64,000 nt of DNA. It comes from Psococerastis gibbosa (Eukaryota > Arthropoda > Insecta > Psocodea > Psocidae). A model generated the notes under the pieces. The model worked only from the letters and a program-made list of their open reading frames with translations, was not told the origin of the DNA and made no database searches. Within the stretch, counting starts at the first letter, position 1; each line of letters starts with the position of its first letter. Positions 4,454 to 43,364 of this stretch are shown piece after piece. A program made the translations under genes and the position numbers. The DNA lies in contig OZ020485.1 in the NCBI GenBank assembly GCA_963971405.1, positions 39,429,469 to 39,493,468 on the forward strand, written 5' to 3'.

Positions 4454-4535
4454 CCAGCCGCAACTCGGCATCTGTATCCATTTGCCTTAGGACATCAGCA
4501 TTAGCGTTAGAACTGAAGGCTTGGCAGCTGAAATT
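4454..4535 (-). mobile_element. Short non-LTR retrotransposon fragment (lineage E)
   Basis: The sequence matches the stretch just upstream of the reverse-transcriptase C-terminus in the copies at 55535-55850 and 24665-25020, including AACTCGG, GCATC/TGTATC and CTCAGCATTA-like blocks. It is too short to assign a frame. Confidence 0.5.
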
Positions 4536-4539
4536 TTAT

Positions 4540-5150
4540 GCAGGCGGAAGCTGTGTTAGAAGGGTGCTGAAGAAGTAACAATGACGGAGCCATTTATGAG
4601 TCACTGGTATGTAAAACTACAACTGATACAGTTAATAGTGTACGGGTGGACCCTGAACTTGTACGGCAGGTATGGGACGGGACGACGTCCGGTGTGATAA
4701 ATAATGTGGGCATCTGACTCGCCTTGCCGCTCGCTCGTACCTGACCTACCGGAAATCGGATATAGGTTCCGCCCGGAGGCATGCAACTTTTAGACCGACG
4801 AAATGATTTTATATCATCAAAAAATCACGCATGACTCATTCTAGGGGGAGATTTACTCTTCTTCCGTATTAGGTAGCGTATGCAGGTAACAAAGCCGTGG
4901 CACGAAAGTCGACAACACCTCGATCATTCAGGCACGACGACTGGTAGTGGATTCTGTTCTATTTGGGAAACATGAACGCCAGGCGCGTTGAGGTTTCGAA
5001 CGTCGACCTTAAATAAATGATGACTATGATACTTTAAATTGAATCACCATGGTGGAGGTAGAGATATCCTTACCCGCTATACAAGAAATGGAACAAATGG
5101 AGATGTGACAGAGCTCAGAGTATCTTATTGTTTAACACGACACATAACGT
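4540..5150. other. No recognisable gene
   Basis: Mixed-composition sequence. The small open frames here show no domain and overlap one another on the same strand in different frames. Confidence 0.35.
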
Positions 5151-5350
5151 ATTTTTTTTTTAATTTTATTGATAAAAGGTTAAAATCGCATACAAACAAT
5201 TTAATGAATGTATCCGATTTACCTCTTCAATCGCCTCACTAAGTAACCTAATAGGTACTTGTGTCGAGTTATGACACGTCTCCAACTGCAAGATGTGTAG
5301 AGACTCGCATAAGTACAAGCACCCTACCCCTTTGCCACCGAAGTCGCTTT
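5150..5350 (-). repeat. REP-A, about 190-bp SINE-like repeat
   Basis: Shared with 6846-7040, 18583-18765, 26890-27070 and 28072-28215. On its forward strand the family starts near GTGGCAAGGTGGTAGCGTGC, which contains a good tRNA-type A box (TGGCNNAGGTGG form), and ends in an AT-rich tail. A convincing B box is not visible, so tRNA origin is likely but unproven. It abuts the reverse-transcriptase fragment on its right, which fuses the two into one chance open frame. Confidence 0.65.
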
Positions 5351-5384
5351 AGTAGGGTACTGGCCAGCAGAAAACTCTCCGAGT

Positions 5385-5697
5385 TGGCTGAAGTGGTACT
5401 GAGAGACTACCGATGCAGGTTTAGGGGTAGACGACGATCCACAATAGATCAAATCTTTACTGTCCCAATGGTTCTCAAGAAGTGTTATGCGTTCAACGTG
5501 GATGTGCATCAGCTTTATATAGACTTCAAACAAGCGTACGATAGTGTGAAAAACAAGAAGTTGCGCGATTAGCTTCAAGAGTTAGGGTTCCCGCAAAAGG
5601 TGGCCAGACTGGTGTGGGTGACCATGAAAGGGACACGAAATAAGGTAAAACTACAGCTACTTCGTGAACATTTCGTATAACTAGGGCTCAGACAAGG
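5385..5697 (+). pseudogene. Non-LTR reverse-transcriptase fragment (fingers/palm, broken)
   Basis: The translation contains GRRRSTIDQIFTVP and YIDFKQAYDSV, matching the reverse-transcriptase segment that holds the first catalytic Asp in non-LTR elements. After an in-frame stop near 5571 the same frame continues with ELGFPQKVARLV and, past a second stop, GLRQGE, the block before the YxDD region. The YxDD motif itself is missing because a SINE-1 tail abuts at about 5700. It is a dead 5'- and 3'-truncated relic; the element lineage is not resolved. Confidence 0.85.
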
Positions 5698-5699
5698 AG

Positions 5700-5755
5700 A
5701 AAAGCTTAGTAATAGAGCAAAAAGTCAATATTTATTTATATTTATTTATTTATTA
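5700..5755 (+). repeat. SINE-1 3'-end fragment
   Basis: The sequence AGCTTAGTAATAGA..AAAAGTC followed by a TTTATT-rich tail matches the last part of the SINE-1 copies at 22543 and 38157. The tRNA-related head is absent. Confidence 0.7.
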
Positions 5756-6845
5756 CGACTATCAACCCTTTGTTAAATAATTACGTTACCTTAGTTACGC
5801 TATAGTCATTCTACAGTCTATCAGGTGATCTAGTAAGCAGTAAAAAAAAATTAATATCTATCCATTGGGTGCCCAACTACACGCGACCGCAGCACGCCTT
5901 ATTGCGTATGTAGCATAAATATGCAATATGCAGTTAAATAAATCTAATAAGGAAGTAACGAGACAAAAAAATTGAACCACATCTTCTAGTACCTGAAAGA
6001 CCTTCACAGTCAGCGTAGAGAGGACTGCAATGAACTTTTTTTGCAGGCCTTGAAGGTACGCTTCCCTCATGTGTCTATCATTGCCGACAATCCCCAGGGC
6101 CAAGACAATACACGGAGCTTCTCTCCAGCAACTTTCGTGGTCGGGATTCTCATGACAGTTTATAGTAGGTTCGCCTTGAAACCTGAATACGGAAAATAAG
6201 GCTAACCGCGTCCTTGATCATCGCATCCTCTTGCTGGAGGATCCATTTGTAATTATTTATGTATCAATTTTTTGCACTATACTTGAGATTGCAGCAATCA
6301 TATGTGATAGCCATACTATAAACTGTAGTGATTAACTTGTGTTAAAATTTCGTCATCGTCCCATTTAAGGCAAACTGATTGTACAACATTAAATTTGAAA
6401 TGTTGGCGTGGGCATTTGTTCTGTTGCTAACATGGTACATGCTGCCCTATATGAAGAAGAATGACTACGGTATTTTTCATCGTCACCATAGTAATTAATA
6501 TTTGAAAAGACCCGGCAGTGTACCCCACTACATAGTAACTACTTGCAGCGTGCAGCAACGTTGATTGTTAAAACAAGTAAGAATGGGCCTATGCTACCCT
6601 AAAATAGGCGTTGCATCTGCATCTGCTTGTGAAGTAACTGCTATAGTACAGAGGCGGACTGGGACTGGAAATTGCACCTGGCATTTTCGGATACCGCGGC
6701 CCCTTCCTCATATTAGTTCAAAAATTTGAAATTGAAAATGCTGTTGTAATACTTGCTATTAACACAAATTTTATTTTAAAATTTGTTGATTTTTTTTTCC
6801 TTTGTACGTCCGGCCACAAAGAACTATTTTTTTATCCTTAGGCTA
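5756..6845. other. No recognisable gene
   Basis: AT-rich and unassigned. At 6650 the sequence CAGAGGCGGACTGGGACTGG looks like one end of a hAT element, but I found no matching opposite end. Confidence 0.35.
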
Positions 6846-41710: not shown

Positions 41711-42525
41711 ATCGGTATGCGACACGTATAGTCACCACAAACAATTCGATCCTGAGAAGTAAGATCTTAATATAGTAGCATTAGATAGTGGATAAAGATA
41801 CTGTACTAATATAATCGTATATGATAATGCATTAAAATGCGACTTTCATAGGCTAGATACTCTTTTCCTCATAGGAAGTTGTTCTTTACGGTTGGAAGAT
41901 GGTACACGTAAATTCGGCACCTACATTTTATTCCTATATAATATAATCACTAGGAATATTATACAACGCGGGTCAGCGTACCAAATAATAGGTTTTTGGA
42001 CGGGATTGGATACCAAAGCTGATGGGATATAATATACTTTATACAGTATAATATTGTAACGGGTGTACGAATATAATACAAAACCTGAGGTTTCGTATAT
42101 GAATATGAATCTATATACAGTATACAATATCTAATATGGATGCCTAAAAATAAAATCAGCAATCAAGCAATTGTGGAAACTTGGGATTTCTCAAACTGGA
42201 ATTTTATCGTATTATACGGATGGACTTCAAGTCAAAGATTAAGTGAGTTATGTACCGCGAAATCCTCTTGAAAGCAATGGCAATCTTCAGGAGCCCACTT
42301 ATGCAATGGACAAACAGTATTCCATGTTTCTTATGCTAACATCAACTTCCTGAAATCTTTCAAAGAAGTATTGACTTGTATTGATTAAGTTTTTTATTTG
42401 CAAGGAAGGACAAAGAGGGATTGAAAAAACGGTGCCAGTAGGAAAGCGTCACAGTAGCCTAACTACAGTACGTACAGTAGGTACTATTCAATTTGTAAAA
42501 GTGATGGCAATGTTGTAATACTATA
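41711..42525. other. No recognisable gene
   Basis: AT-rich sequence; the stretch 41920-42130 is dominated by ATAATATA phrases. Confidence 0.35.
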
Positions 42526-42623
42526 TAACAAAGGGTTAGTTGGACTTGTATTGCTTGCTGTGTTAATTGCCATTAGAGGTATGGGCTTAATATTCATAGA
42601 GCCCTTTGTCAGGGGAAGGGGGC

Positions 42624-42658
42624 GACGTTTCGGGAGTGGGTACTACTCCCATCATCAT
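42624..42658 (-). ncRNA. Second hammerhead-like core, inside SINE-2
   Basis: The minus strand reads ATGATGA, one T, GGGAGT, a 7-base loop AGTACCC, ACTCCC, then GAAAC and GTC. Stem II is perfect over six pairs. The layout equals that at 41314, including the extra T and the loop length. The first core base is A rather than C, which would probably impair catalysis. Confidence 0.45.
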
Positions 42659-42739
42659 GCTAAGTCCTGAGAAGGACTGAAGGTGTTTGGACGATTGACT
42701 CATTGCTCTTGAATTGTACTCTGAATTATTAAGTAAATC

Positions 42740-42808
42740 CGATCCCCTTGAGGATTCGAACAACCGTTCTCCCGATTGAAATGCAAGCCCTGTAACCACT
42801 CGACCACG
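42740..42808 (-). promoter_or_regulatory. Internal pol III promoter (A and B boxes) of SINE-2
   Basis: TGGTCGAGTGG and GTTCGAATCC are 34 bp apart on the minus strand in a tRNA-like context (GTGGTCGAGTGGTTA). The acceptor stem does not close, so this is a tRNA-derived promoter rather than a tRNA gene. Confidence 0.7.
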
Positions 42809-42850
42809 ATTAACAAAGCAGGCAATGTAAGTCCAACTTACCCTTTGTTA

Positions 42851-43364
42851 AATAGTACTTAGGTAGGCTACTATGTGCAAAGTGTATACGTATAACTGTA
42901 TAAGTGTATACGTATTACAAAGGTCTACAATACAATTGTTATAATGGATTTTCAACCACTAGCTGGGCAGAAGGAAGGAAGTATGATGAATATTTTAATA
43001 CATACGGTACCTTCAAATTATACATACATACAGTAAGTAATTCAGTGTAAGAGTTCAGTTAGTGTAAATACAAAATACAAAGTCAACTTCAAACAAATTT
43101 TGGGGATTTACAGAAAATCAATAAATGCACACAAGACTGTAAGTGTAACTTCAAGAGAACAGCTAATAGCCTATAGGAAAAAGTGTAATAGAATTTAAAA
43201 GCGTATTTTGCTGATTATGATCTGAAGGATAATTTAGTGTAAGAGGAAATTAGTCGTTCGTTTAAAATAAATAAATAAATAAACAAATAATCATTTACTT
43301 ACAAACAGACCTAAAAGTCCAATAAAATGCAAATATTAATTTAATGTAAGATGAAAAAATGTTC
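42851..43364. other. No recognisable gene; AAAT microsatellite and REP-K
   Basis: (AAAT)n at 43266-43288 is followed by a REP-K copy (43289-43335) matching 14424-14470. The rest is unassigned. Confidence 0.5.

What the first reader, a model, noticed from the sequence alone, without database searches (positions are those of the whole stretch)
42526..42850. A composite element: inverted ends, tRNA promoter and a hammerhead-like core in 325 bp
The sequence shows 42-base inverted ends (37/42), a tRNA-type A and B box right after one end, and a hammerhead-like core (stem II of six perfect pairs, GAAAC) near the other. SINEs normally lack long inverted ends, and TIR elements normally lack pol III promoters. 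Hammerheads are known in Penelope-like retroelements and retrozymes. The combination suggests a pol III-transcribed, possibly self-processing unit that moves as DNA, or a SINE captured between TIRs.
Basis: partly seen in the sequence, partly recalled or inferred. Interest (0 to 1): 0.78.

Follow-up and report, generated by a model that had tools for sequence, protein, structure and literature searches.

The report
SINE spread by Penelope-type retrotransposon
This is an old copy of a short, repeated jumping element that combines a tRNA-like start with the ribozyme-bearing end of a Penelope-like retrotransposon, and its inverted ends look like its own tail copied backwards during insertion, not the ends of a cut-and-paste transposon.

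Summary
The sequence features are real, but the reading changes. The window copy (about 42488-42857, minus strand) belongs to a genome-wide family. Its sense strand reads: tRNA-like A/B-box head, minimal hammerhead-like core, about 150-nt tail. The "inverted ends" are this tail, present a second time in inverse orientation at the head end. Of 64 inserts annotated, 41 carry such an arm. Strong target-site duplications (18 of 64) lie outside the arms, so arms and body entered together. In 29 of 41 armed inserts one arm ends near tail position 310 and the other near 346; none has both at 346. This one-sided extension matches the published "tail" on one of two inverted pLTRs of Penelope-like elements (PLEs). 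Six of 35 element- or body-selected copies run upstream into a PLE-type GIY-YIG endonuclease C-terminus; 20 of 35 start within six bases at the tRNA-like head. The hammerhead-like motif occurs 1,467 times in the genome, an altered core twice, and its stem II changes compensatorily between families. Best explanation: a SINE made from a PLE terminal repeat with a pol III-type head, moved by PLE machinery. The window copy lacks core base C3. No intact partner PLE was found.

The parts
42488..42808 (-). direct (main) copy of the SINE: reference positions 10-345 of 347, 87% identical to the family reference
   Evidence: row L001, converted to window coordinates
42806..42857 (+). inverted arm: second piece of the 3' tail (reference 262-313) joined head-on to the head end; it ends at the inner site while the main copy ends at the outer site
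42796..42806 (-). A-box-like TGGTCGAGTGG of the tRNA-like head
   Evidence: sequence; box consensus recalled
42752..42762 (-). B-box-like TGTTCGAATCC (family majority AGTTCGAATCC)
42663..42678 (-). 6-bp hairpin AGTCCTTCTCAGGACT just 5' of the hammerhead-like core
42624..42658 (-). minimal hammerhead-like core (ATGATGAT-GGGAGT-loop-ACTCCC-GAAACGTC); C3 is A in this copy; no closed stem III
42488..42530 (-). outer end of the tail, including the roughly 36-nt extension present on only one of the two arms

Best explanation
A SINE with a tRNA-like head, derived from the terminal repeat (pLTR) of a GIY-YIG Penelope-like element (PLE) and inserted by PLE machinery. Shown from sequence: head, minimal hammerhead-like core and tail form one unit; the same unit follows directly on a PLE-type endonuclease C-terminus in some copies; many copies begin at the head; some inserts have clear target-site duplications of 10-15 bp; a second, inverted, shortened copy of the tail is often fused head-to-head; where both ends are defined, one arm ends at an inner site and the other about 36 nt further out in 29 of 30. 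Inferred: RNA polymerase III starts transcription at the head; a PLE protein binds the tail region, cuts both strands of the target and starts reverse transcription at two neighbouring internal sites, one per side; the two cDNAs, each truncated at its own point, are joined head to head. When only one side is copied, an armless SINE results. The hammerhead may cut some template RNAs in the middle.
For: Arms are the element's own tail with variable junctions. TSD score >=8 in 18 of 64 inserts against 0 of 505 mismatched flank pairs. Reciprocal inner/outer ends in 29 of 41 armed inserts, 1 both inner, 0 both outer, 11 with an end elsewhere; among the 21 armed inserts fetched by the element or body query (neither holds the extension), 12 are reciprocal, 6 in each direction. 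The same anatomy is published for PLEs: optional 31-bp tail on one of two inverted pLTRs, TSDs of 9 and 10 bp (PMC3846280), and two adjacent internal RT start sites with cutting and extension of both strands (PMC11167929). Of 35 element- or body-selected copies, 20 start at reference 1-6, 9 at 7-17, 6 run on into PLE-type coding sequence. EN-plus-head DNA query: 36 of 40 scored hits (889 candidates) cross into the head. The EN piece matches 20 of 20 PLE endonuclease loci fetched from this genome, which were found with Pfam GIY-YIG. HHR-like motif 1,467 times, altered core 2. No TTTT in the 347-nt sense reference.
Against: No intact or long partner ORF: longest open frame 187 aa among 150 scored of 344 EN C-terminus candidates. 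The EN pieces of this family reach no GIY-YIG Pfam match; their identity rests on similarity to other PLE ENs, with E-values for a small database. The RT domain was not shown; L114 has only a PLE-like stretch judged by eye. None of 20 PLE EN 3' flanks carries this tail. No transcript data. Rfam recognises neither tRNA nor hammerhead. 46 of 64 inserts, the window copy among them, have no strong TSD, perhaps from age. The sharp 5' end could come from RNA processing instead of a pol III start.
Confidence: 0.84

Rival explanations
1. SINE captured between the TIRs of a DNA transposon, or a pol III unit moving as DNA.
For: Long inverted ends, strong fold of the whole unit.
Against: Arms are the SINE's own tail at variable junctions; strong TSDs outside the arms vary in length, 10-15 bp; 23 of 64 inserts lack the arm; where both ends are defined, exactly one of the two arms has the 36-nt extension in 29 of 30.
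Confidence: 0.03
2. No separate SINE: all copies are 5'-truncated PLE insertions, and the start at the head reflects processing of the PLE transcript at a tRNA-like structure (RNase P-type cut) or an RT stop.
For: The head lies directly downstream of PLE-type coding sequence in some copies; arm starts also cluster at 257-263, just 3' of a GAGGC/GCCTC hairpin, as if RT stops there.
Against: 20 of 35 head-containing copies start in one 6-nt stretch, 6-11 nt before the A box, about where a pol III start is expected (recalled); no TTTT in the sense reference.
Confidence: 0.25
3. Inverted arms arise by self-priming (fold-back), as proposed for rotifer PLEs (PMC3846280), and not by priming from both sides of the target.
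For: Head-to-head arrangement in 14 of 14 motif neighbours under 1 kb among 100 listed places on C1; a slight excess of shared variants between the arms of one insert, 9 in 2,190 positions against 137 in 64,095 between inserts (29 inserts).
Against: The two arms are truncated at unrelated points (for example 259 against 115 in L061, 262 against 1 in L006) and end at different outer sites.
Confidence: 0.2
4. Retrozyme: a circular self-cleaving RNA with hammerheads in direct repeats.
For: Hammerhead-like core, small non-autonomous unit.
Against: Same-strand motif neighbours within 1 kb: 0 of 14 (100 of 1,467 places); core lacks a closed stem III; pol III-type head.
Confidence: 0.04

Closest known systems
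Penelope-like elements with GIY-YIG endonuclease (Poseidon of Anolis, PMC11167929, main text read; Pen2 and others of Adineta vaga, PMC3846280, sections 6 and 11 read)
   Same: Head-to-head inverted terminal repeats, extension of about 30-40 bp on only one of them, TSDs of about 10 bp, minimal hammerhead, frequent truncation.
   Different: Here the terminal repeat has a tRNA-like A/B-box head between the ORF end and the hammerhead-like core, and the unit spreads without the ORF. No such head was seen before the motif in L104-L107 of this genome.
Sm-alpha / Sj-alpha SINE-like elements of schistosomes (passages in PMC8490949; Ferbeyre 1998 and Laha 2000 seen only as references)
   Same: Small SINE-like element with a type I hammerhead; a pol III promoter there is recalled, not from a call.
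   Different: The passages I read describe no head-to-head arms with reciprocal ends and no link to a PLE endonuclease.
Metazoan retrozymes (PMC7229834, passages)
   Same: Small, non-autonomous, hammerhead-bearing; PLEs are suggested there as the mobilising machinery.
   Different: Canonical type I hammerheads in tandem repeats and circular RNA; no tRNA-like head in the passages read.
tRNA-derived SINEs that share a 3' tail with a LINE (recalled)
   Same: pol III-type head plus a tail taken from an autonomous partner.
   Different: Partner is of PLE type; inverted second tail; 3' ends at two sites; no poly(A) or simple-repeat tail seen.

Membership tests
SINE (tRNA-derived) | Short, high-copy, non-coding unit flanked by variable-length TSDs | tested here: met
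   64 distinct inserts; strong TSD in 18 of 64 against 0 of 505 control pairs; 46 of 64 without one
SINE (tRNA-derived) | Internal A and B boxes at a tRNA-like distance | tested here: met
   TGGTCGAGTGG and AGTTCGAATCC, 33 nt apart in the window; consensus recalled, no chance control run
SINE (tRNA-derived) | Recognisable as tRNA by a tRNA model | tested here: not met
   ARAGORN none in the window; Rfam none at E<=10 in 20 loci
SINE (tRNA-derived) | Transcribed by RNA polymerase III | not testable with these tools
   inferred from the 5' ends
PLE-type insertion | Head-to-head inverted terminal repeats with an extension on one side only | tested here: met
   29 of 41 reciprocal, 0 with both outer
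PLE-type insertion | Unit adjoins a GIY-YIG endonuclease ORF | tested here: met
   decayed fragments only; Pfam does not recognise them
PLE-type insertion | RT of PLE type in the same element | tested here: inconclusive
   L114 shows only a decayed PLE-like stretch, by eye
Hammerhead ribozyme | CUGANGA core, stem II, GAAA, UH cleavage site | tested here: met
   family majority CTGATGA-T-GGGAGT..ACTCCC-GAAACGTC (197 exact places), with one extra T before stem II; the window copy has lost C3
Hammerhead ribozyme | Match to an Rfam hammerhead model | tested here: not met
   minimal PLE forms lack helix III (PMC6155905)
Hammerhead ribozyme | Cleavage activity | not testable with these tools
   indirect: 5 of 116 arm pieces start exactly after the predicted cut
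TIR DNA transposon / MITE | Constant termini and constant-length TSD | tested here: not met
   variable junctions, strong TSDs 10-15 bp, arm absent in 23 of 64
Retrozyme | Direct repeats each with a hammerhead | tested here: not met
   14 head-to-head, 0 same-strand neighbours under 1 kb in 100 listed of 1,467 places

The most novel reading that the evidence does not exclude
A Penelope-like retrotransposon carries a pol III promoter in its terminal repeat, between its ORF and its ribozyme, and so produces its own SINE. The SINE inherits the PLE's two-site reverse-transcription start region, and each insert records the pair of start sites used on the two target strands. The hammerhead cuts template RNA in vivo, since some arms begin exactly at the predicted cleavage product.
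Probability: 0.4. Interest if true: 0.78.

Novelty: new variant of a known kind. Interest (0 to 1): 0.62.

Why it matters
How PLEs integrate, and what their hammerhead is for, are not settled in the two PLE papers read. A high-copy SINE family with short, readable inserts records start sites, truncations and junctions that PLE biochemistry predicts. It would also add PLEs to the machinery that carries SINEs. In nine answered text searches I saw no described PLE-driven SINE; I saw listings and abstract starts only, apart from five papers of which outlines, sections or passages were read, (six exact phrases) found 0 papers, and most subscription journals are not covered. The case also shows that inverted ends around a SINE need not mean a DNA transposon.

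Tried and rejected
TIR transposon: rejected. The 617-aa open frame found with the tail peptide looked like the partner PLE; it runs from an intronic copy through a likely splice acceptor into what looks like a host exon, so rejected. Tail as the start of a PLE ORF: the sense frame is open for the last 81 codons of the reference, but one antisense frame is open for 69 codons too, there is no Pfam match, and in another PLE of this genome the equivalent frame stops at once (L104-L107); left open. Partner among 20 PLE EN 3' flanks: none matched the tail at E<=1, though 4 of 20 (L104-L107) have an exact CTGATGATGG..CCGAAAC motif about 380-390 nt from the EN match start. RVT_1 search: its 150 scored matches could not be tied to this family. 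Within-insert shared variants: too few to decide between one template and two. De-duplication lost two inserts wrongly: L024/L044 (armless, reference 2-310) and L070 (pieces 259-345 and 233-310 in opposite orientation, that is, reciprocal); both fit the picture and are not in the counts. Species: not determined; 409 Mb and nine contigs over 20 Mb seen in listings; a limpet was a guess.

Full report
What is in the window. Minus strand, about 42488-42857. The two inverted arms (49 nt, 88%), A and B boxes (42796-42806, 42752-42762) and a hammerhead-like core (42624-42658) are all there. The strand folds far better than shuffles (z -7.8), as a sequence with such arms must. ARAGORN and Rfam recognise nothing at their thresholds. 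A permissive Rfam search of the region gave two sub-threshold snoRNA matches, and of 20 loci with copies 13 sub-threshold matches, none to tRNA or hammerhead.

It is a repeat family. The genome (409 Mb, 68 contigs, unnamed) gave 40 scored places of 2,697 first-look candidates. I fetched 88 loci, many overlapping: 28 of the 40 places (8 there, 20), 30 of 40 of the body query, 30 of 40 of the tail query, and a few later ones. After removal of duplicates, 64 distinct inserts were annotated against a 347-nt reference; L113 and L114 among them were fetched for their PLE pieces. A check found that two inserts had been dropped wrongly; they are left out of the counts, and both fit the picture.

Anatomy in sense orientation: GGCGAGGGCCG, A box, B box, a spacer, hairpin AGTCC..GGACT, CTGATGAT-GGGAGT-AGCACC-ACTCCC-GAAACGTC, then a tail of about 150 nt that ends ...CCCTTTGTTAAATA (position 310) or about 36 nt further at ...CAAATAGATT (about 346).

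The arms. In 41 of 64 inserts a second piece of the tail, or in single cases of another part, stands in inverse orientation on the 5' side of the main copy, mostly directly adjoining it. Its inner junction differs from copy to copy. Target-site duplications reach score >=8 in 18 of 64 inserts (10-15 bp; 12 armed, 6 armless) against 0 of 505 flank pairs taken from different inserts; at score >=6 it is 22 of 64 against 6 of 505. In the armed ones they lie outside the arms (for example L004, L006, L027, L060, L074, L078, L084, L111). Arm and body therefore came in together. The window copy itself shows no clear duplication.

The reciprocal ends. 21 inserts have the main copy ending at the outer site and the arm at the inner site, 8 the reverse, 1 both inner, 0 both outer, and 11 have an end elsewhere (inner 303-320, outer 330-347). 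Part of the set was fetched by a tail query, which favours the first class. Among the 21 armed inserts fetched by the element or body query, neither of which holds the extension, 12 are reciprocal, 6 in each direction. In PLEs of a rotifer an optional 31-bp extension is found on one of two inverted pLTRs, with TSDs of 9 and 10 bp (PMC3846280, sections 6 and 11 read). In Anolis the PLE protein cuts and extends both strands and starts reverse transcription at two adjacent internal sites, the stretch between them being that extension (PMC11167929, main text read). The match is close in layout and size.

Link to a PLE. Upstream of the head, 6 of 35 element- or body-selected copies continue in a sequence that L113 shows to be the C-terminal part of a GIY-YIG-type endonuclease. 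A DNA query across this junction gave 40 scored hits of 889 candidates, 36 of them crossing into the head; the scoring favours long matches. The peptide YIGETCRSLAERVQEHKRGV... matches all 20 PLE endonuclease loci that I had fetched after the Pfam GIY-YIG search, at E 8e-5 to 0.009 in a small database. Pfam itself does not recognise these fragments. The copies seen are decayed: the longest open frame is 187 aa among 150 scored of 344.

A separate SINE. Of the same 35 copies, 20 begin at reference 1-6 without PLE sequence before them, 9 at 7-17, 6 run on. Of 30 tail-selected loci, 4 begin at 1-18 and 26 at scattered places between 91 and 259. A sharp start 6-11 nt before the A box is about what a pol III start would give (recalled). 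The sense reference has no TTTT. Processing of a longer PLE RNA at the tRNA-like head would give the same picture and is kept as a rival.

The ribozyme. CTGATGATGG-N3-24-CCGAAAC occurs 1,467 times (749 + 718), its reversed control 0; an altered core occurs 2 times, its reversed control once. The exact family core occurs 197 times, reversed control 0. In the first 100 listed places, all on contig C1, 88 have a stem II of four pairs or more, of which the first two are fixed by the pattern; 25 of 37 distinct stem-loops form pairs three and four, against 405 of 1,332 when sides are dealt between types. The main types are GGAT/ATCC, GGTG/CACC, GGTA/TACC and GGGAGT/ACTCCC: compensatory change between families. 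In the same 100 places, 14 neighbour pairs lie within 1 kb, all head-to-head. So minimal hammerhead-like motifs in inverted pairs are common to several families here, and 4 of 20 PLE 3' flanks carry one. Minimal PLE hammerheads without helix III are known (PMC6155905, passages). Of 116 arm pieces (72 direct, 44 inverted), 5 begin exactly at the base after the predicted cut GUC, 9 within 193-199, and 12 within 257-263 just 3' of a hairpin. The first cluster fits cleaved templates, but C-rich microhomology at the junctions and alignment uncertainty weaken it. The Anolis study found cleavage only with protein added, no need for cleavage in vitro, and no reads ending at the site.

Judgement. A SINE with a tRNA-like head and a PLE terminal repeat as body and tail, inserted by PLE-type priming (0.84). 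The pol III step, the cutting of templates and the identity of the partner protein are inferred. The window copy is diverged (87% to the reference), without C3, and probably inert.

Noticed in passing
window 42450-42465 and 42860-42875: A separate 16-nt inverted repeat (88%) just outside the element, possibly part of the target sequence.
   Followed up: no
L113:3771-4734 and 4463-6316: Two copies of the element in opposite orientation beside a likely exon of a host gene with zinc-finger-like C-terminus; an open frame runs from the copy through a likely splice acceptor.
   Followed up: partly
G000, first 100 listed of 1,467 places, all on C1: Hammerhead-like motifs of at least four stem II types; all 14 neighbour pairs under 1 kb are head-to-head.
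   Followed up: partly
reference 257-263 (tail): 12 of 116 arm pieces start here, just 3' of a GAGGC/GCCTC hairpin, as if reverse transcriptase stops at it.
   Followed up: no
L104-L107, about 380-390 nt from the EN match start: Related PLEs have CTGATGATGGTGTAACACCGAAACAGC(T/C)GT, a hammerhead-like core followed in three of four by a palindrome, with no tRNA-like head seen before it.
   Followed up: partly
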